In this document: positions 10,456-19,784 of the stretch, piece after piece
Position numbering within the stretch: the first letter of the stretch is position 1
Layout of the letters: each line of letters starts with the position of its first letter
Assembly (NCBI GenBank): GCA_903896015.1
Contig: CAITWF010000113.1
Location: 1 to 60,450, forward strand
Reading direction: 5' to 3'
DNA length: 60,450 nt
From: an uncultured Opitutia bacterium
GTDB taxonomy: Bacteria > Verrucomicrobiota > Verrucomicrobiia > Opitutales > Opitutaceae
The notes under the pieces: generated by a model
What the model was told of the DNA's origin: nothing
Seen by the model: only the letters and a program-made list of their open reading frames with translations
Databases searched by the model: none
Made by a program: the position numbers and the translations under genes

Positions 10456-12564
10456 TCACAGCTTTGCCGTCTCGTCGACTTCGAGTCGGAGATAATCGTA
10501 GACGACACCGCTCGTGATTTCTCCGGCAGGGACCGTGAGGGTCAGTTCGTTTTCACCCGCCTTCAACAGGGCTGCGTCGAACTTCTGTGCATATTCCCGC
10601 CAGATGCCCTTGTTGGTATTATAGCGGAGCGCGTTGGTGGCCACGGTCCGGATGGTGCCGACTTCCTGGCCGTTGACGCCCACCGCCAGCCCGCCGCCGC
10701 CATCGGCGCCCGCCAGCGCCACGCGCAGCGTCGCGAGACCTTGGTCGGCTTGGTCGCGGTGGAACTTGATCGTCCAGGTCGTCGCGCGGCCGCGGCCGTA
10801 AACGCGCCACGGTCCCGCTTCGTTGGTCGGGGGATACTTCTCTTGCGACTCCGCTTTCACCCAGCCGAAGCGCTGATTGGCGGGATCTTTCGCCTCGGGA
10901 TTGAGCCACGCGGTCGACTCGCCGTGCGGCACCTGCTGGAAAAACCAGTCCTTGTGATAGTCGCTCCGGCCGATTGTATAGGTAATGTCGTTCGGGTAGA
11001 GGAGCGGATAGCGCAGACCCCAGCCCCAGAGCCAGTAATTCGCGCCGTCGCCCTTGAAAAATTTTCCACCCGTGCGATCCGGATAGCCGACCTCCCAAAC
11101 TTGCCGGCCGTAGCGGACCGGCTTCCAGTCGAGCCTGCCGAGATCAATCGTTTTGCCGGCTTCGACGGTGATGTCGGTCTTGGCGAACTCGCCCAACACA
11201 CCCTCGGCAAACGCGTGCAACGTGTAGGTGCCCGGCCGCACGTTGCGAATCGTGAAGTGCCCGTCTTCGCCACCCTCGGCCCAGAACTGGTAATAGTTCG
11301 CGTCGTGATCCCACGTGACGGTCCGGCCGTTGCCCGAGCGCAGCGCGAATGCCGTGCCGGGTCCTTCGAAATCCGGCTGCGTGAGGCCCGCCCAGAGATG
11401 CGGCAGCTTCTTGGTGGCCGCCTGCGGATCGTTCAACGCCAGTTGGCCTGCGACCGTGGCCCGCGCGGCTTTCTGCGGGTAGTCCACGCCCTGCACCCAG
11501 GCAAAGGGCCATTGCGCCTGCGTGACCTTGGCCTGCACGAGCGCGTCGGTGAACAGCGCGTTGGCATTCGCGGTCCAGGCGGTCGGAATGATCGGATTGC
11601 CCGCGGTGGCGGCGAATTTTTCGAGGTCCGCCGGCGCGGGCGTCGCGGCACTCTGCAGCGCGTTGCAATAAACGAAAATCGGCCCGACGACCTTGTTCCA
11701 CTCCTGCCCGGCGGGGATGTTGCACTCGGCGCCACCCGCGTAATGTCCCGAGGTCCAGTAATCGAGCATCGTTGCCCCCATGTGGCAGACCAGATCGATT
11801 CGGGTGGGACCGCCGCCGAGATATTCGTGGGACGGATTGATGAACCAGATGCCGACGTGTTGCTTGATACTCGACCAGCCATACGCGGGAAGCTTATACA
11901 TTTCCGCGCAGTAACTGTATTTGTGTTCGACCGAGTTCTTATAGAGACCAGTGCTCAGGATGCGCTGCTCTTTGGCGTGAATGACGACGCCCGCGCGCAA
12001 ATCTTCGTTGCTGCACATGGGCATATTGCGATCGGCGTCGACCGAGAGCCAGTCGAAGTCGGGGATCATTTGGTTGATGAAGCGGCTCTCGCCTTCACCC
12101 GCCGCGGGATAGCCGGCGCTGTGCGAGTAGATCGCATAGGTGTAGAAACCGCTCACCCCTCGTTCCAGTGTATAGCGCACCTCAATATCCATGCGACCGG
12201 TCACGCCCTTCACGGCAACTTCGGCGCGCTCGCCGCCGTTTGAAACCGGGTCGACCGTGACCGCTTGGGTTACCGTCCCGGACGGCAACTGCTCCCAGCT
12301 TTCGGAGCGGCCATTTAGCACCTCGAGTCCGTGGTAAACGAGCGAAGTCATTTTGCCGTTTCGCTTCGCGATCCCGGCTTTGACGATGCCGTTGTCGAGC
12401 GTCCATGAATCGCCGTTGTCGGTGATCGTCGCCGCGGTGTTTACTGCGAGTTTGGCAACGACCGGCGCAGCATCGGCGGCGCGAAGCTTTGGGCTGGAAA
12501 ATGAGGTGGACACCAAGGCAGCCAGCGCGAGGGCGTGCCGAAAGCTCGACGGGGGGATATTCAT
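10456..12564 (-). CDS. Secreted rhamnogalacturonan lyase, PL4 family (copy 1)
   Basis: 702 residues with a signal peptide ending near LRAADA. PL4 enzymes cut the rhamnose-galacturonate backbone of pectin by beta-elimination. The N-terminal two-thirds is the beta-sandwich catalytic domain (GVVIHAKEQRIL, KNSVEHKYSY, KQHVGIWFINPS); the Lys in HKYSY is a candidate catalytic residue. Near residue 430 comes a fibronectin-III-like module (RNVRPGTYTLHAFA), then a C-terminal carbohydrate-binding-like domain (WLWGWGLRYPLLYPND, RVYGRGRATTWTIKF, GVVYDYLRLE). It is clearly paralogous to the gene just upstream on the same strand; the two are 56 bases apart. Confidence 0.85.
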   Translation of the reverse strand: MNIPPSSFRHALALAALVSTSFSSPKLRAADAAPVVAKLAVNTAATITDNGDSWTLDNGIVKAGIAKRNGKMTSLVYHGLEVLNGRSESWEQLPSGTVTQAVTVDPVSNGGERAEVAVKGVTGRMDIEVRYTLERGVSGFYTYAIYSHSAGYPAAGEGESRFINQMIPDFDWLSVDADRNMPMCSNEDLRAGVVIHAKEQRILSTGLYKNSVEHKYSYCAEMYKLPAYGWSSIKQHVGIWFINPSHEYLGGGPTRIDLVCHMGATMLDYWTSGHYAGGAECNIPAGQEWNKVVGPIFVYCNALQSAATPAPADLEKFAATAGNPIIPTAWTANANALFTDALVQAKVTQAQWPFAWVQGVDYPQKAARATVAGQLALNDPQAATKKLPHLWAGLTQPDFEGPGTAFALRSGNGRTVTWDHDANYYQFWAEGGEDGHFTIRNVRPGTYTLHAFAEGVLGEFAKTDITVEAGKTIDLGRLDWKPVRYGRQVWEVGYPDRTGGKFFKGDGANYWLWGWGLRYPLLYPNDITYTIGRSDYHKDWFFQQVPHGESTAWLNPEAKDPANQRFGWVKAESQEKYPPTNEAGPWRVYGRGRATTWTIKFHRDQADQGLATLRVALAGADGGGGLAVGVNGQEVGTIRTVATNALRYNTNKGIWREYAQKFDAALLKAGENELTLTVPAGEITSGVVYDYLRLEVDETAKL

Positions 12565-12620
12565 GGGGATTTGAACGACAGGAAAAACACCGAGGGTGGA
12601 GGGGCGTTTTCGCGGGCCGG

Positions 12621-14960
12621 TTAATTCGTCGCGCCCACGGGTTTGCCCTCGAGCTTTTGAGTCTCGTCGAGTTCAAGGCGCAGATAATCGTAGACGACGC
12701 CGCTGGTGAGTTCACCGGCGGGCACGGTGAGTTCGATTGTGTTCTCACCGGCTTTCAGCAGCGCAGCATCGAATTTGAGCGTCTGCTCCTGCCACACGGC
12801 TTTGTTCGTATTGTAGCGCAGGGCGTTCGTGCTCACGGGATGAACGACCCCGGCCTCCTTGCCGTTCACACCGATGAGGAGCGCCGGTGTATCGGCGCCC
12901 GCAAGAGCGAGTCGCAGCGCAGCGACGCCCTGCTTCGCCTTCTCTACGTTGAACTTAATCGTCCACGTGCACGCGCGGCCACGGCCGTAGATGCGCCAAG
13001 GACCGCTTTGATTCGTCTGGGGATATTGATCGAGCGACTCGGCCTTTACCCAGCCGAAACGTTGGTTAGCGGGATCTTTCGCGGCAGGATTTAACCACGC
13101 GGTCGATTCGCCGTGCGGTGTCTGTTGGAAAAACCAGTCGGTGTGGTAGTCGCTCCGGCCGATCACATAAGTGATGTCGTCCGGAAAAAGCAGCGGGTAA
13201 CGCAGCCCCCAGCCCCAGAGCCAGTAGTTGGCGGCGTCGCCCTTAAAAAATTTTCCGCCCGTGCGATCGGAATAGCCGATTTCCCAAAGCTGCCGACCAA
13301 AACGCACCGGCTTCCACTCAAGTTTTCCGAGATCGAGCGCTTTGCCGGCTTCGATTGTGATGTTCGCCTGCGCGAATTCTCCGAGCACCCCGTCGGCAAA
13401 CGCGTGCAGCGTGTAAGTGCCGGGACGCACATTTGTGATAGTGAACTTTCCGTCGTCGGTGCCGTCGTTCCAAAACTGATAGTGTTTCGCGTCGTGCACC
13501 CAGTCACTCGGCCGCGGCCCGAAACCGAAGCCGCCGCGACCGCGGCCCGGCCCGCCACGTGCGCCGGCGGGGGACGCGGCCAGCGCTTCGCGCGCCGCCG
13601 CGAGGGTTTCGGGCGTGGCGACAGTGATGAACTGGTTGAGATTTGCGCCTGCGCTGCCGGACGCATCGGGATACGCGAGACCAACAGTGAGATGGGGCAA
13701 TTTCGTCGCAGCGGCTTGCGGATCGTTAAGCACGATCTGGCCGGTGACACTACCGCGGTCGTTTTTGTGCGGATAGTCGATGCCTTTGACCCAGTCGTAA
13801 GGCCACGCGGCTTTCTCTTTTGCAGCTTGCCCGAGTGCATCTTGCCAGAGTGCGGTCGCATTTTGCTTCCACGCTGGCGGCACCGCCGGATTGCCGGCAG
13901 TCGCGGCGAGCGTGTCGAGATCGGACTGCGAGGGTATCGCAAAATGATCAAGCGAGTTCACATAGATCATCATCGGCCCGACCACCTTCGTCCAGGCCTC
14001 GCCGGCTGCGATGCTCGCGTTCGCACCGCCGCCGTAATGCGTGCCGCGCCAGTAATTCAACAGGATCGGATCGGGATTGTCGTTGTCGCCGAAGTGGCAA
14101 ACGAGTTCCTGCTTCGTCGCGCCGCCGCTGAGATATTCGATCGTCGGGTTGATGAACCACACGCCGACGTGCTGCTTGGTGGACGACCAGCCATACGCGG
14201 GTATTTTATATTGGACGGCATTGTAGCTGTATTTGTGCTCCACCGAATTCTTGTAGACGCCCTGGCTCAGGATGCGCTGCTCCTTCGCGTGCACGACGAC
14301 ACCGGTGCCCCAATCTTTCGGTGCGCACGCGAGCATGTTGCGATCGCCGTCAACCGAGATCCAGTCGAACCCCTGATTGACGCGAATGATGTAACGACTC
14401 TCGGGCATGTTGAGCGGCCCATAGTCCGCAGGGTGAGAAAAAATCGCATAGACGTGCACACCGCTCTCGCCGCGCGCGAGGGTGTAGCGCACTTCGAGAT
14501 CGAGATTCACCGTGCCGCCAGCCGCGCCGCCCGGTGAACCCGGCGTCAGCCCCGCCGCCCGATCACCCTTCGTGACGCCCTTGATCGAAACCTCGGCGCG
14601 ATCACCACCGTTGGCCGCGGGATCGATCGTGATCGACTGGGTAAGGCCGCCCACTTTGGCCGCGGCAGAAGGATCCTGCTCCCAGCCGCCGACGTGACCC
14701 TGATCGTGGCCGAGGACATCGGCGCCGCGATAGATCAGCGACTCAAGTTCGGCGCGGCGCTTGTCGAGGCGCACGGTGACGATGCCGTTATCGAGCACAA
14801 AGGTGTCGGCCTCCTCCTTCACGGTGACGGGAGTGGTGACGGCAGTCCGGGCAATCACCGGCGCGATTTCCGCCGTCGACGTCGTCTGGATGGCAGCGAT
14901 CAGGGTGCCGGTGAGGAGAAAGGAAATAAACCGTAAGTTGGGGCGGTGTGGAACATGCAT
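12621..14960 (-). CDS. Secreted rhamnogalacturonan lyase, PL4 family (copy 2, with insert)
   Basis: 779 residues from ATG 14960, chosen because MHVPHRPNLRFISFLL begins a signal peptide. Same domain order as the neighbouring copy and nearly identical blocks (VVHAKEQRIL, KNSVEHKYSY, NVRPGTYTLHAFA, YWLWGWGLRYPLL, IYGRGRACTWTIKF). It is longer for two reasons: small insertions in the N-terminal half (for example the Gly/Ala/Pro stretch encoded near 14510-14565), and a Gly/Arg-rich insert (GARGGPGRGRGGFGFG) encoded around 13505-13570 between the catalytic and fibronectin-like parts. Tandem duplication is the simplest explanation. Confidence 0.85.
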   Translation of the reverse strand: MHVPHRPNLRFISFLLTGTLIAAIQTTSTAEIAPVIARTAVTTPVTVKEEADTFVLDNGIVTVRLDKRRAELESLIYRGADVLGHDQGHVGGWEQDPSAAAKVGGLTQSITIDPAANGGDRAEVSIKGVTKGDRAAGLTPGSPGGAAGGTVNLDLEVRYTLARGESGVHVYAIFSHPADYGPLNMPESRYIIRVNQGFDWISVDGDRNMLACAPKDWGTGVVVHAKEQRILSQGVYKNSVEHKYSYNAVQYKIPAYGWSSTKQHVGVWFINPTIEYLSGGATKQELVCHFGDNDNPDPILLNYWRGTHYGGGANASIAAGEAWTKVVGPMMIYVNSLDHFAIPSQSDLDTLAATAGNPAVPPAWKQNATALWQDALGQAAKEKAAWPYDWVKGIDYPHKNDRGSVTGQIVLNDPQAAATKLPHLTVGLAYPDASGSAGANLNQFITVATPETLAAAREALAASPAGARGGPGRGRGGFGFGPRPSDWVHDAKHYQFWNDGTDDGKFTITNVRPGTYTLHAFADGVLGEFAQANITIEAGKALDLGKLEWKPVRFGRQLWEIGYSDRTGGKFFKGDAANYWLWGWGLRYPLLFPDDITYVIGRSDYHTDWFFQQTPHGESTAWLNPAAKDPANQRFGWVKAESLDQYPQTNQSGPWRIYGRGRACTWTIKFNVEKAKQGVAALRLALAGADTPALLIGVNGKEAGVVHPVSTNALRYNTNKAVWQEQTLKFDAALLKAGENTIELTVPAGELTSGVVYDYLRLELDETQKLEGKPVGATN

Positions 14961-15048
14961 CAACGCGCGAGACGCGCCCCGCCCAAAACCGTTTCGAGCC
15001 GACGGAGTTCGCCGCGTCGGACAGTCTGCCGCGAGGCAGCAACGCAAC

Positions 15049-18000
15049 TCACGCGGTCTGAATTGTTTCGTCGGGTAGCAGTGCGGAGATCATCGCGGCA
15101 CCGTCGGTCTGCTGCTGGGTGGTGAGCGTTAACGGATCGGCGTCAGTCAGGGAGAGGGCGTTCAGTTTGCCGGAGCCGCCATTGTAGAGCGCGATAAGGT
15201 TGCCCCAACTGCTGGCGATATCGCCAGAGGTGTCGGCGACCGCGAGGTTGCGGATGGTCGAATCCGAGGCGATTGTAGAAGCGTCGGCGGCATTCACCTC
15301 GGACAGGTCGACTTGGTAGCTGCTGTCGATCTTGCTGAGGGCATCGCTGCCGGACGTCCAAGCTTGTTGATTGAGCGCGAGAACCGGGGTCGAGTCGGTT
15401 AGGTGCAGACCGGAGAGGGAGCCGCCGAGCGCGAGGATGTCGTCAAAGTTGGTAGAGACGTTGTCCGCCGTATCACTGATGCCGATTGAAGCAACTTGGT
15501 CGACGGCTTTGACGTTGCCGAGGTCGGCCGTGGAGACGGCGCTGGCGGCGATCTGGAAGGCGTTGGAGATCTTATCGAGCGTCGCGGAATCGTTGAGAAT
15601 CTGCGAACCGGTGAGGGAGAGTGTGCCACCTTCATCGGTGAGCGCAATCGAGTTGACGTTCGAGAGGCCGGCGAGGGCGTCGAAATTCGTGGCGACGTCT
15701 CCGCTGGAGCCGGTGAGATCCATCGCGCTCACGTGGGCATTGGCGCCGAGCGTGGCGGCATCGGCCACCGCGACGTCGGAGAGCGCGACCTGATAGTTGC
15801 CGTCTTTCACGAGGCCAAGCACGTCGGACGAGCTGTTGAACGCATCGGCCGACATCGTGAGTGCGGTGGTCGGATCGGAAAGCTGGATCTGCGTGAGCTT
15901 CGATTCGGCGGCGAGATCGCTGAGCGAAGCTGAGATCGTCGAGGAATTGTCGGCGACTTGAATTTGCGTGACCGCGCTGTCGCTGCTGAGCGACGAAACG
16001 TCCGCGACGCTGGCGCCGGAAACCGAAACGGCGAGCGAGGCGGAGAACTTGTCACCCAGGCTGTGGGCAGAGGTCCATTGCTTCACCGTCAACTGCAGCG
16101 GATCGGAGTCCGTCTGCGCGATGTCGACGAGCTTGGTGCCGAGGGTGCCGAGGGTATCCCACGCGGCGGAAAGATGCGCGCCGGAGTCGGACACCGCGAG
16201 GGATTTGACAGAGGTGCTCGCGGCGAACGTCGCGGCCTTTGCCGCGGCGACATCGGAAAGATCGGCTTGGTAACCGCCGGCGATTTTCGCGAGCGTGCCT
16301 TGGTTTTGATCAAACGCAGTGCCAGTCAACGCGAGTGCCGTGGTGCCGGCATCGGTCTGCGCGATGCTCACTAACTTGTGACCGATCGTCGTCAGATCGG
16401 CGAGATTGCCGACGATGCTGGAGGCATCGCCCGTGACCTGCATCGTTGCAATCTTGGCGTTGGCGGTGAACAAATCCTTGGCTGCGGCGGCATCGACTTG
16501 ATCGACCGCAAGGGTGTAGCGGCCTCCTTTGATCAAGCCGAGGACGCCTTGCGCACCGTCGAGCTGGCTGGCGTGCAAGGAGAGGCTAGTGGCGGGTGCG
16601 GTGAGCGTGATGCTGTTTAATTTTCCGCCGCTGTTGAGCGTCGCGAGGCCGGACAATGAATTTGTCACGGCGCTGCCGTCATCGGTGATGTCGATTTTGT
16701 CGACCACGCTATCGGAACCAATTTGCGCCGCTTGCGCGACGCTCGCACCGAAAACGGAAAACTTCAGGGAGGCGTCGAATTTACCGACGAGTTGGTCGTT
16801 GACGCCAGTTTCATACTGGTTGACTGAGAGCGAAAGCGAGCCGTCGTCGGACTTGCTGACGCTGGCGAGCGAGCCGCTGATCGAGCGGAGGGAATTCCAG
16901 TTGGCGAGGAGGTTCTTGCCGGTGTCGGCGACGGCGAGTTGGGCGACGTGGACGTTTGTCGCGTCAGTGAGTGCCTTAGCGGCGGAAACCCCCGTGACGT
17001 TGACCGTGTAACCCCCGTCGATCTTGGCGAGGACCGAGGAGCGCGACTCCAACGCGGACTGTGTGACATTGATCGCGGTGCCGCTGTCGGACTGTTGGAT
17101 TTTAGCGACCTTCTTTCCGAGTTGATAAAGCGTGTCGAGGTTCGACCTAATTTGGGCGCTGGTGCCGCCGACCTCCATCGAGACGACGTGCGTGTTGCTC
17201 GCGAGATCATTGAGCGAGGTCATCGACGCACCGGTGACGGCGAGGCTGTAGACGCCGTTCGTAATTTTGCTGAGAACGCTCTGCGTGCCAGTGAGCTTGT
17301 CGCCGGTAAGCAGCGCGGCATCCATAGACATGGTGTAGTTCTTGCCGGTCAGCGCGATGCCTGAAAGAAGGCCGGCATCACCGACGGTTTTGAGATCGTC
17401 GAGATTGGCGGCGACATTGTCGGCGGAATCGGAGACTTTGACGGAGGCGACATGATCGACGTTCGCCACTGCCGCAGCCTGACCGGCGGCCACACCAGTG
17501 ACCGCGAGATTGTAGGTATGGGTGTTATCGACCGTGAACTTGCCGAGCAGGTCCTGGCTTTGGGCGAGTTGATCGCCGGTGATTGCAATGTTGTTGGAGG
17601 AATCGGAGACGGTGATGGCGGTGAGGCTTCCGGACAGCCGTTGGAGCAGGGACCATTTTTTCGCGAGGTTCGCGGCGGTGTCATTGACCGAGACCGAAAT
17701 GACTTTCTGGTTCGCGGTGAGCGCGGCGGTTTGCGCCGCGGAAGCGCGGATCACGGCGAGGTGGTAGCTGGTGAGAATTTTTCCGATAGCGACGGAATCC
17801 TGAGTGTATTGCGTGCCGGTGATGCTGAGTGGGGTGGACGCGTCAGTTTGCGAGATGCTTTTGAGCTTCAAGCCAGCACGCTGAAGCGCATCGAGATTGG
17901 ATTCGATCGCATCGGTTGTGTCGCTGACGTCGATCGATTTGATTTTGGCGTTGGCGGTGAGGGCGGGAGAGCTGCCGAGGCCGAGGGTGTCGCTGACGCT

Positions 18001-18576
18001 CGCGCTTGAGATGGCCAGGGTGTAGGCGCCGTTCTTGATGGAGTTGAGCGCATCGCCATCGGCGGCGAGCTGCGCGGCGGAGATTTTCAGCGTCGAGGCG
18101 GCACCGGTCTGGACGATTTGGGTGAGCGAGCCGGCGCTCGCCAGGGTCTGTAGACTGTCGAGATTGCGCTGGATGTTCGCGCTGGTGTCAGCGACGGCGA
18201 TCGTGGTGACGTAGCTGGGCTTGGCCGCGACGAGCGAGGCGGCATTGGCGGCCTTCACGCCAGAGACGTCGAGGGTGTTGCCATCGCCGGCACCCCATTT
18301 GGCGAGAATGGCGCTGTCCTTGGCATATTGGGTGGCGGTGACAGAGAGATTTTGCGCCGAGTCCGTCGTGGTGAGGTCGGTGATTTTAGCCGCGACACTT
18401 TGGAGCGAATCGAGGTTCTTAAGGATGTTCTGGAGGCTGTCTGCAATGACGACCGTGGCGGAGGGCTTGAGCCGCAATGTGGTCAAAGCCGCCGCTACCG
18501 TCACGGGATCCGTAGACGTTTGCGGGACGAAAATTGTCCCCGCGGCGGCGTGGACGGCACCATTAACTGTGGGCAT
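15049..18576 (-). CDS. Giant repetitive protein of about 14 tandem 80-residue units
   Basis: 1175 residues, almost entirely repeats of a unit that reads roughly V.SI.VSDT..NI..NLD.L..LG.KL.SI..TD....L.ITG.Q......L.KI...Y.L.V.GVSAA.A..L. Ser, Thr, Ala and Asp dominate; there is no Cys. The alternation of short beta-like strands and a helix per unit suggests an elongated solenoid. No signal peptide and no GGxGxD calcium repeats are seen, so its export route is unknown; the C-terminus (LLPDETIQTA) might carry a non-cleaved signal. Large repetitive proteins of this type are usually surface-attached or secreted, but that is inference. It is the first gene before the two PL4 lyases on the same strand. 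Confidence 0.8.
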   Translation of the reverse strand: MPTVNGAVHAAAGTIFVPQTSTDPVTVAAALTTLRLKPSATVVIADSLQNILKNLDSLQSVAAKITDLTTTDSAQNLSVTATQYAKDSAILAKWGAGDGNTLDVSGVKAANAASLVAAKPSYVTTIAVADTSANIQRNLDSLQTLASAGSLTQIVQTGAASTLKISAAQLAADGDALNSIKNGAYTLAISSASVSDTLGLGSSPALTANAKIKSIDVSDTTDAIESNLDALQRAGLKLKSISQTDASTPLSITGTQYTQDSVAIGKILTSYHLAVIRASAAQTAALTANQKVISVSVNDTAANLAKKWSLLQRLSGSLTAITVSDSSNNIAITGDQLAQSQDLLGKFTVDNTHTYNLAVTGVAAGQAAAVANVDHVASVKVSDSADNVAANLDDLKTVGDAGLLSGIALTGKNYTMSMDAALLTGDKLTGTQSVLSKITNGVYSLAVTGASMTSLNDLASNTHVVSMEVGGTSAQIRSNLDTLYQLGKKVAKIQQSDSGTAINVTQSALESRSSVLAKIDGGYTVNVTGVSAAKALTDATNVHVAQLAVADTGKNLLANWNSLRSISGSLASVSKSDDGSLSLSVNQYETGVNDQLVGKFDASLKFSVFGASVAQAAQIGSDSVVDKIDITDDGSAVTNSLSGLATLNSGGKLNSITLTAPATSLSLHASQLDGAQGVLGLIKGGRYTLAVDQVDAAAAKDLFTANAKIATMQVTGDASSIVGNLADLTTIGHKLVSIAQTDAGTTALALTGTAFDQNQGTLAKIAGGYQADLSDVAAAKAATFAASTSVKSLAVSDSGAHLSAAWDTLGTLGTKLVDIAQTDSDPLQLTVKQWTSAHSLGDKFSASLAVSVSGASVADVSSLSSDSAVTQIQVADNSSTISASLSDLAAESKLTQIQLSDPTTALTMSADAFNSSSDVLGLVKDGNYQVALSDVAVADAATLGANAHVSAMDLTGSSGDVATNFDALAGLSNVNSIALTDEGGTLSLTGSQILNDSATLDKISNAFQIAASAVSTADLGNVKAVDQVASIGISDTADNVSTNFDDILALGGSLSGLHLTDSTPVLALNQQAWTSGSDALSKIDSSYQVDLSEVNAADASTIASDSTIRNLAVADTSGDIASSWGNLIALYNGGSGKLNALSLTDADPLTLTTQQQTDGAAMISALLPDETIQTA
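15070..18462 (-). repeat. Nested tandem repeat region inside the giant protein gene
   Basis: 14 units of about 78-88 codons can be aligned by eye, beginning at ATVVIADSLQN and ending at IRNLAVADTSG. They also fall into a three-unit order: units 4, 7, 10 and 14 have a Trp after the first helix (LAKKW, LLANW, LSAAW, IASSW); units 6, 9 and 12 begin with a Met variant (VVSMEVGG, IATMQVTG, VSAMDLTG); units 2, 5, 8 and 11 form the third class. The super-period is about 240 residues (720 bases). Confidence 0.7.
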
Positions 18577-18611
18577 TACCTAACTTATCGGCTGGCTTCC
18601 GGGGGACTTAA

Positions 18612-18698: not shown

Positions 18699-19784
18699 TC
18701 AGTTTCGCCCCGGCTTGGCGGGCTTCTTCGACTTGCTCTCGACGAACTCGCGAATGATGGCCATGCGCTGACGTTGACGGTCTTCCTCTTCGATTTCGTC
18801 GGACGTTCGGATGGCTTCGTGCTTCGTCATCGCCTTTCGCATCTTGGTCAGTGCGAGATACTCAAGCTGGCGGATGCGCTCGCGGGTAACGTGAAATTTC
18901 TGGCCGACTTCCTCGAGCGTGAGCTCGTCACGACCGTCGAGACCGAAGCGCAGCTTGATGATTTCGGCTTCGCGTTTGTCGAGGGACTCCACCATCGCGT
19001 GAAGATCGCTGTTCTGGCTACGGTCGCGCAGGCCTTCGAAGGGACTGACGGCGTTTTCGTCGCCGACGATCTCGCCGAACGTGCCGGAGTCGCCGTCTTC
19101 GCCGATTGGTGCGTCGAGTGAAGCCGGGCGGACGCTGACGGACTTCAAATGCGCTACCTTGGACGTCGGAATTTGGAGCTCGATCGCCAATTCCTCGTCC
19201 GTGGGCTCGCGGCCGAGCTGCTCGGTGAGCGCCATCGCGGTGCGGCGCATCTTGGAGATCTTGTCGACGAGATGGACAGGCAGGCGGATCGTTTTGCTCT
19301 GGTTGGCCAGCGCACGCTTGATCGACTGCTTGATCCACCAGGCGGCGTAAGTGGAGAGTTTGCCGCCCTTGCGTGGATCGAAACGTTCGACGGCCTTCAC
19401 GAGGCCGATGTTACCCTCGCTGATCAGGTCGAGGAGTGGGAGGCCAAAGTCCTTATAGTCCATCGCGATTTTCACGACGAGCCGAAGGTTGGCGGAGATC
19501 ATGTGATCGCGCGCAGCCTTGTCGCCACGGCGGATACGTTTCGCGAGACGGATTTCGTCCTCGATCGTAAGGAGAGCGGTTTTGCCAATTTCCTGGAGAT
19601 ACAGTTGGAGATTACTGCGTTCTCCGTGCGGAATCGGGGCCTCGGGCGCGGAGCGATCGGGCTTTTCGAGAAAGGACGGCGGCGCGTCATAGGGCGCGGC
19701 GGTAAGAGTGGCGGTCGTGGCCTCAGAGGCGGCGCGGTCGTCAGCTGAATTGGGTGAGCGGAACGATTGGGCTTTCGTGGGCAT
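18699..19784 (-). CDS. RpoD-like sigma-70 factor
   Basis: 361 residues. Regions visible in order: 1.2 (LQLYLQEIGKTALLT, about residue 60), region 2 (NLRLVVKIAMDY, LISEGNIGLVKAVERFD, STYAAWWIKQSI), region 3 (PVHLVDKISKMRR, EQLGREPTDEELA) and region 4 with the helix-turn-helix (TLEEVGQKFHVTRERIRQLE). The N-terminus has a short low-complexity stretch and lacks the long acidic region 1.1 and non-conserved region of many primary sigma factors. It may be the housekeeping factor or a group 2 (RpoS-like) alternative; sequence alone does not decide. It has its own promoter region upstream and a strong terminator. Confidence 0.9.
   Translation of the reverse strand: MPTKAQSFRSPNSADDRAASEATTATLTAAPYDAPPSFLEKPDRSAPEAPIPHGERSNLQLYLQEIGKTALLTIEDEIRLAKRIRRGDKAARDHMISANLRLVVKIAMDYKDFGLPLLDLISEGNIGLVKAVERFDPRKGGKLSTYAAWWIKQSIKRALANQSKTIRLPVHLVDKISKMRRTAMALTEQLGREPTDEELAIELQIPTSKVAHLKSVSVRPASLDAPIGEDGDSGTFGEIVGDENAVSPFEGLRDRSQNSDLHAMVESLDKREAEIIKLRFGLDGRDELTLEEVGQKFHVTRERIRQLEYLALTKMRKAMTKHEAIRTSDEIEEEDRQRQRMAIIREFVESKSKKPAKPGRN

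What the first reader, a model, noticed from the sequence alone, without database searches (positions are those of the whole stretch)
15049..18576. Giant protein with a nested repeat: 14 units grouped in a three-unit super-period
The 80-residue units are not equal. They cycle through three classes (Trp class at 4, 7, 10, 14; Met-start class at 6, 9, 12; a third class at 2, 5, 8, 11). This points to growth by block duplication of about 240 residues and perhaps a three-fold solenoid. It has no visible signal peptide.
Basis: seen in the sequence. Interest (0 to 1): 0.55.

Follow-up and report, generated by a model that had tools for sequence, protein, structure and literature searches.

The report
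Solenoid repeat protein tied to flagella
A long bacterial protein built of 14 similar blocks in groups of three belongs to a rare family that jumps between distant bacteria and carries several signs of being made and exported with the flagellum, the cell's propeller.

Summary
In detail: ORF 15049-18576 (-) encodes 1175 aa with 14 units of 68-89 aa; units three apart are the most alike. AlphaFold predicts an alpha/beta solenoid, three beta-alpha coils per unit, after a disordered uncharged N-terminus. A congener has a gap-free 73% orthologue; a genome of a Comamonadaceae-titled family has a 60% one of equal length, so the gene moved laterally. Three Burkholderiales relatives have 17 units, one three-unit block more. 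Outside the coordinates: in 7 of 7 clade genes a sigma28-type element (TNAAG-N14-NYCGAT) ends 7-9 nt before the start codon, against 3 of 4183 other start codons. Two Burkholderiales copies lie inside flagellar clusters, a third about 6 kb beyond fliI. FlhA is in 7 of 7 genomes, the type I adaptor HlyD in 4 of 7. Best reading: a flagellar-regulon solenoid protein exported by the flagellar type III apparatus. Against: the window organism's own flagellar genes lack the element, and its copy is not near flagellar genes. Export is inferred, not shown.

The parts
15049..18576 (-). ORF of the 1175-aa all-repeat solenoid protein (P0001)
   Evidence: AlphaFold full length mean pLDDT 81.5, pTM 0.38
18585..18611 (-). 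sigma28-type promoter element TTAAGTCC-N11-GCCGATAA ending 8 nt before the ATG
   Evidence: same place in all 7 clade genes; consensus TAAAGTTT-N11-GCCGATAA from PMC2859248 passages
18517..18576 (-). first 20 residues: no D/E/K/R; residues 1-19 pLDDT under 50 in the full-length model; possible type III export signal
18454..18516 (-). N-terminal cap (residues 21-41), helix 27-36
18211..18453 (-). unit 1
17452..18210 (-). super-block A: units 2-4 (unit 4 Trp class)
16705..17451 (-). super-block B: units 5-7 (unit 6 Met class, unit 7 Trp class)
15973..16704 (-). super-block C: units 8-10 (unit 9 Met class, unit 10 Trp class)
15052..15972 (-). irregular last block: units 11-14 (unit 12 Met class, unit 13 extra, unit 14 truncated, weak Trp class)
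12621..15047 (-). downstream neighbour, rhamnogalacturonate-lyase-like (PL4 domains); likely start 88 nt after the repeat gene's stop; kept as neighbour in the sister species (76% identity over 792 aligned residues). Link to the repeat protein not shown

Best explanation
The gene encodes an elongated alpha/beta solenoid: 14 units of about 80 residues, three beta-alpha coils each, about 42 coils in all, grown by duplication of single units and of three-unit blocks. It belongs to a small clade, found so far in the window's genus and in Burkholderiales, whose members consist of these repeats and nothing else that I recognise: no visible Sec signal peptide and no type I C-terminal module. The clade carries its own sigma28-type promoter so close to the ATG that the mRNA would be nearly leaderless. 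I infer that it is a late-flagellar gene product whose uncharged, disordered N-terminus is taken by the flagellar type III export apparatus, and that the protein acts outside the cell, on or near the flagellum, as a long surface or adhesive rod. Shown by computation: repeats, super-period, lateral spread, conserved promoter-like element, flagellar-cluster location in Burkholderiales, N-terminal composition. Inferred: that sigma28 reads the element, export by the flagellum, function as a rod or adhesin.
For: Element within 7-9 nt of the start in 7 of 7 clade genes with fixed internal spacing although the spacers differ: scores 17-21 of 25, top-scoring site of the 300 nt upstream in 6, second in G427. 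Of 4188 candidate start codons on 8 contigs, 8 have score >=17 there; 5 are clade genes, the other 3 are non-ATG codons; the starts of G569 and G427 were not among those tested. Nine repeat genes outside the clade score only 7-10 at 5-11 nt. In G424 and G425 the same TCAAG-N14-NCCGAT form precedes fliC and fliD, and fliS in G425. Location: G424 between fliE and fliC, with one more large gene in the gap; G427 between fliK / an flhB-like piece and flgN, flgM, flgA, an unassigned ORF, flgB, flgC, flgD, flgE (on two contigs with a 208-nt, 96% end overlap, so their adjacency is inferred); G425 about 6 kb after fliI, the last flagellar gene found there. FlhA over cut-off in 7 of 7 clade genomes; HlyD over cut-off in 4 of 7, not in G000, G001, G528. 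First 20 residues uncharged in 6 of 7; of 174 long ORFs from 19 fetched stretches 11 are uncharged: 3 clade proteins, 5 which I read as FlgE, FliD or FliC, 1 as FliF, 2 others. Zero Cys and 0.7% Glu against 8.3% Asp. dN/dS 0.19 between the two congeners.
Against: In G000 and G001 the host's own flagellar genes (fliC, motA, cheA, tar and others) show no clear element, and none of the ORFs read downstream of the other exact matches recurs between the two genomes, so what reads it there is unknown. By score alone the element is not rare: in 1500 random 300-nt pieces of the window the best site reached 17 or more in 231 and 18 or more in 58; its fixed position is what stands out, and the 7 genes are homologous, not independent. 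The gene is not near flagellar genes in G000 and G001 (stretches read) nor in G528 and G569 (the G528 contig ends 3.8 kb past the gene). FlhA is also present in 6 of 11 genomes with other repeat-family members, so its presence discriminates poorly. Wider relatives are linked with type I secretion: a Methylovirgula protein beside peptidase-domain ABC and HlyD genes, a Bradyrhizobium one with HlyD about 1.5 kb away, a bluetail-model match (E 8e-6) inside a Methylococcales one. An uncharged N-terminus is not specific: of 13 E. coli proteins that I list from memory as export substrates only FlgK has none, and MotA and FliO have none either. A site 8 nt from ATG implies a nearly leaderless mRNA, unlike fliC (62-66 nt).
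Confidence: 0.5

Rival explanations
1. It is a type I-secreted surface adhesin like other members of the repeat family; the flagellar signs in Burkholderiales are incidental.
For: Family members outside the clade sit with type I genes or carry other C-terminal parts, such as a metalloprotease; 9 of 11 outside genomes and 4 of 7 clade genomes have HlyD over the cut-off; composition is of the extracellular kind (my reading).
Against: No HlyD over the cut-off in G000, G001 (best 55-57 against 208.65 bits) or G528 (nothing at E<=1e-20; completeness of that genome not told); no recognised C-terminal module; the clade-wide promoter element and cluster positions are left unexplained. Only two type I models, TIGR01843 and TIGR03375, were searched in G000 and G001.
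Confidence: 0.25
2. It is a flagellar-regulon protein that stays inside the cell, for instance a scaffold or a ruler-like factor, and is not exported.
For: Promoter element and gene location need only co-regulation; no secretion-related family is recognised by any model.
Against: Uncharged disordered N-terminus like the FlgE, FliD and FliC proteins of the same genomes; no Cys and very low Glu; type I-linked wider relatives.
Confidence: 0.15
3. It is an accessory of plant-polysaccharide breakdown, co-transcribed with the rhamnogalacturonate-lyase-like gene downstream.
For: Same strand, about 88 nt apart, kept together in the two congeners.
Against: By eye I saw no such neighbour among the ORFs listed around the Burkholderiales copies, though they were not all searched by family; two species with general synteny downstream are weak evidence.
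Confidence: 0.1

Closest known systems
Non-flagellar proteins secreted by the flagellar type III system (Campylobacter; PMC5223770, abstract and outline seen)
   Same: Would share export through the flagellum and, as I recall for the flagellar co-expressed determinants, sigma28-type control and no Sec signal
   Different: No sequence relation known to me; far longer, all-repeat solenoid; export untested here
Type I-linked repeat proteins of Proteobacteria (the Methylovirgula DUF4082 protein and others)
   Same: Same 80-aa repeat family
   Different: That protein carries other domains and has type I genes nearby; this clade has neither in the window's genus
Leucine-rich repeat and other beta-alpha solenoids
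   Same: Stacked beta-alpha coils; weak Foldseek hits to predicted viral LRR proteins (best E 4e-4, TM-score 0.17); a repeat-family protein outside the clade (L050) has a weak LRR_EndoS match, E 0.0075, below its cut-off
   Different: No LRR model listed at E<=1 for this protein; three unlike coils per unit; no solved structure at E<=0.001, best VIA Z 4.3 over 92 residues at 3.4 A

Membership tests
Flagellar type III secreted protein | Export depends on the flagellar apparatus | not testable with these tools
   Needs mutants and secretome
Flagellar type III secreted protein | Host encodes the flagellar export apparatus (FlhA) | tested here: met
   G000 FlhA 802.3 bits against a cut-off of 772.1; 7 of 7 clade genomes over it
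Flagellar type III secreted protein | Uncleaved N-terminal signal, usually disordered and poor in charge (recalled) | tested here: inconclusive
   No D/E/K/R in the first 20 residues in 6 of 7; residues 1-19 pLDDT under 50; composition is not proof
Flagellar (sigma28) regulon | sigma28 promoter shared with late flagellar genes of the same genome | tested here: inconclusive
   Met in G424 and G425; element present at the window gene but not at the host's own flagellar genes in G000 and G001
Type I (RTX) secreted protein | Type I system (HlyD-type adaptor) in the genome | tested here: not met
   G000 and G001: 0 of 2 over the TIGR01843 cut-off; the TIGR03375 transporter model also not reached, but no control genome reached that cut-off either; other type I models not searched
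Type I (RTX) secreted protein | C-terminal secretion module or RTX repeats | tested here: not met
   No Pfam or NCBIfam match of that kind; the protein ends inside unit 14
Sec-dependent surface protein or autotransporter | N-terminal signal peptide | tested here: not met
   By eye only, no predictor run; the start is fixed by the in-frame TAG 6 nt upstream and by N-terminal conservation among the clade proteins
Leucine-rich repeat protein | LRR sequence motif | tested here: not met
   No LRR model listed at E<=1 in Pfam for this protein
Leucine-rich repeat protein | LRR fold | tested here: inconclusive
   Weak structural matches only

The most novel reading that the evidence does not exclude
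A previously undescribed family of giant alpha/beta-solenoid proteins is delivered through the flagellum, forming long rods on or near it, and travels between bacterial phyla as one gene with its own nearly leaderless sigma28 promoter, changing length by whole three-unit blocks.
Probability: 0.35. Interest if true: 0.78.

Novelty: new variant of a known kind. Interest (0 to 1): 0.6.

Why it matters
Flagella are known to secrete some non-flagellar proteins (PMC5223770, abstract); a solenoid of more than 1100 residues under flagellar control would extend what that export channel carries and suggest an adhesive or structural accessory of flagella in environmental bacteria. No Pfam or NCBIfam model matched this protein, so copies are probably filed as hypothetical. 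The fixed 14-unit and 17-unit forms offer a clean case for how nested repeats grow, and the conserved promoter-ATG spacing gives a testable leaderless mRNA.

Tried and rejected
Pfam, NCBIfam and PHROGs on the protein: no real match (DUF1216 at E 0.11, below its cut-off, only). PDB by sequence: none at E<=10; by single-unit profile: best E 0.32, chance-like. Phages: none; plasmids: one Methylovirgula hit, none with the G424 protein. Eleven viral contigs matched the DNA pattern; 0 of 11 gave a repeat-family hit by HMM. Structure search: no solved fold at E<=0.001 and no VIA Z above 4.3; this shows neither that the fold is new nor that it is known. LRR and TIM-barrel-like hits rejected as local beta-alpha resemblance. 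Idea that the second giant G424 gene (from L078:15552) is a relative: no HMM hit. Idea that other exact promoter matches in G000 mark a FliA regulon: of the four others, one lies opposite or outside a clear gene start, the rest lie before a sugar cytidylyltransferase, an ORF with no Pfam match and an HDOD protein; none recurs among the ORFs read in G001, so I do not use them as support. FlhA presence inside against outside the clade (7 of 7 against 6 of 11) is not decisive alone. Literature: searches, aimed at this family or its motif, found no description in the held open-access library (most subscription papers are not held); searches were for the sigma28 consensus and for flagellum-secreted proteins. 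Papers: PMC2859248, PMC4866697 and PMC7286023 seen as passages only, PMC5223770 as abstract and outline.
Full report
OBSERVATION. ORF 15049-18576 on the minus strand encodes 1175 aa. After a 41-residue N-terminus it is made of 14 units of 79-89 aa, the last cut to 68. Pair scores normalised by shuffling are highest at lag 3 (mean 10.20 over 11 pairs; the other lags from 1 to 9 give 6.05-7.78). Modulo-3 grouping beats label permutation at p = 0.0011 (all 14 units) and 1.5e-4 (units 2-13). MAFFT folded 24 overlapping 3-unit windows into the modulo-3 register on its own. At DNA level the copies are old: no tandem array and only short stretches at 61-79% identity.

WHAT IT LOOKS LIKE. AlphaFold on residues 1-375 with 15 own or related rows gives mean pLDDT 87.9 and pTM 0.75; full length with 6 rows gives 81.5 and pTM 0.38, so the overall shape is not fixed. 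A typical unit reads strand-helix-helix-strand-strand-helix-helix-strand-helix, that is three beta-alpha coils, repeated through the chain. Residues 1-19 have pLDDT under 50 in the full-length model and residues 27-36 form a cap helix. No solved structure matches at E<=0.001; the best VIA Z is 4.3 over 92 residues at 3.4 A. The protein has no cysteine, 0.7% Glu and 8.3% Asp.

RELATIVES. The own genome has one copy. Of 57 genomes searched among relatives, 2 have it: the own one and a congener, G001, with 854 of 1175 identical residues and no gap; dN 0.19, dS 1.0. Of 387 genomes drawn from the same phylum only the own one matched the unit profile; G001 was evidently not in that draw. A DNA pattern scan of genome contigs gave 28 stretches; 27 hold a repeat-family ORF by HMM, all 27 titled as Proteobacteria or groups of them, and the one Verrucomicrobia contig (L053) gave no HMM hit. 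In the family of G424 (record title Comamonadaceae) 4 of 399 genomes matched: G424 itself, G434, G528, G569. G569 holds a 60% identical protein of the same 1175 aa with nearly the same C-terminus. At least 21 of the 387 phylum genomes are of its own family, so the phylum must be small and is very unlikely to be Pseudomonadota. On that reasoning the gene has crossed phyla; direction is not tested and no tree was built.

THE CLADE. Seven genes share a related N-terminus (a short uncharged stretch, often with NYY, then V-x-V-A-x-A-L) followed by repeats to the end: window, G001, G569 (14 units, identical unit lengths except the last), G424, G425, G528 (17 units; 1417 aa, 1428 aa counted from the first TTG, 1411 aa), and G427 (split over two contigs). 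The two forms differ by exactly three units. Lag-3 similarity is strong in 14-unit forms (10.0, 10.1, 11.9) and weak in 17-unit forms (7.5, 7.5, 7.8, where in each another lag, 4, 6 or 9, is higher).

THE PROMOTER-LIKE ELEMENT. Upstream of the window gene stands TTAAGTCC-N11-GCCGATAA-N8-ATG. The published sigma28 consensus is TAAAGTTT-N11-GCCGATAA (PMC2859248 passages). Scanning the 300 nt upstream of the 7 clade genes finds such an element ending 7-9 nt before the start in all 7 (score 17-21 of 25; top site in 6, second-best in G427; in G425 counted from the ATG, not from the upstream TTG). Control 1: of 4188 candidate start codons on 8 contigs, 8 have such a site at score >=17, and 5 of these are clade genes (the G569 and G427 starts were not among those tested); the other 3 are non-ATG codons. 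Control 2: nine repeat genes outside the clade give 7-10 at 5-11 nt, though their best sites anywhere in 300 nt reach 14-19. Control 3: in 1500 random 300-nt pieces of the window the best score is 17 or more in 231, so position, not score, is the strong point. In G424 and G425 the same form precedes fliC and fliD, and fliS in G425. Against: in G000 and G001 the host's own flagellar genes lack a clear one. Genome-wide exact matches of TNAAG-N15-CCGATAA are 5 in G000 and 3 in G001, with reversed-pattern controls of 0 and 1; only the repeat gene is shared among those read.

FLAGELLAR LINKAGE. By tblastn with E. coli K-12 proteins, the G424 copy lies between fliE and fliC of a large fli-flg-flh-mot locus; the G425 copy lies about 6 kb after fliI, the last flagellar gene found on that side; the G427 copy follows a fliK (PF02120, E 2.5e-5, below its cut-off) and an flhB-like piece and is followed by flgN, flgM, flgA, an unassigned 632-aa ORF, flgB, flgC, flgD and flgE. 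G528 and G569 have no flagellar hit in the stretches read, nor do the window or the fetched part of the G001 contig beyond sigma-factor and response-regulator hits. FlhA is over cut-off in 7 of 7 clade genomes and in 6 of 11 outside ones. HlyD is over cut-off in 4 of 7 clade genomes and 9 of 11 outside; G528 is of untold completeness, so its absence there is weaker.

N-TERMINUS. The first 20 residues have no D, E, K or R in 6 of 7 clade proteins (G569 has one). In 174 long ORFs from 19 of the fetched stretches 11 are uncharged: 3 clade proteins, 5 that I read as FlgE, FliD or FliC from sequence and position, 1 FliF, 2 others. This fits flagellar type III substrates but is not proof: among 13 E. 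coli proteins that I list from memory as substrates only FlgK has none.

MECHANISM. Best reading (0.5): a flagellar-regulon protein exported through the flagellar type III apparatus and acting outside as a long rod, perhaps adhesive. Shown by computation: the repeats, the conserved element, the cluster positions and the N-terminal composition. Inferred: sigma28 recognition, export, function. The main rival is type I export, the apparent habit of some wider relatives, which the missing HlyD in G000 and G001 (about 98% complete) argues against.

NOVELTY. No Pfam or NCBIfam model matched the protein, and four literature searches aimed at the family or its motif found nothing on it in the held library. 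As a way of working, flagellum-dependent secretion of non-flagellar proteins is known (PMC5223770 abstract); a giant solenoid of this kind in that role would be a new variant.

Noticed in passing
window 18699-19784 (-): RpoD/RpoS-like sigma-70 factor directly upstream of the repeat gene, with a terminator-like GC hairpin and T run after it (by eye); in the sister species a different gene stands upstream.
   Followed up: partly
window 10456-15047 (-): Two tandem rhamnogalacturonate-lyase-like genes downstream (the second by eye); the sister species shows one alignable block there that both copies hit.
   Followed up: partly
L088 and L093 (G424, G425 contigs C2): FlgE-like hook proteins of 1142 and 1050 aa, and flgK matches split by about 2 kb: oversized hook parts in genomes that carry the 17-unit protein.
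   Followed up: no
L078 15552 onward into L088: A second 1617-aa protein beside the repeat gene in the G424 flagellar locus, with its own TCAAGCTT-N11-GCCGATTC site about 57 nt upstream, no Pfam match in its first 1450 aa and no repeat-family match.
   Followed up: partly
L067 1325-4855 (-): Acetobacteraceae member of the repeat family whose C-terminal part is an NF038122-family metalloprotease.
   Followed up: no
L123 1536 (G000 contig C123): HDOD-domain protein whose possible GTG start also lies 8 nt after an exact TNAAG-N15-CCGATAA element.
   Followed up: partly
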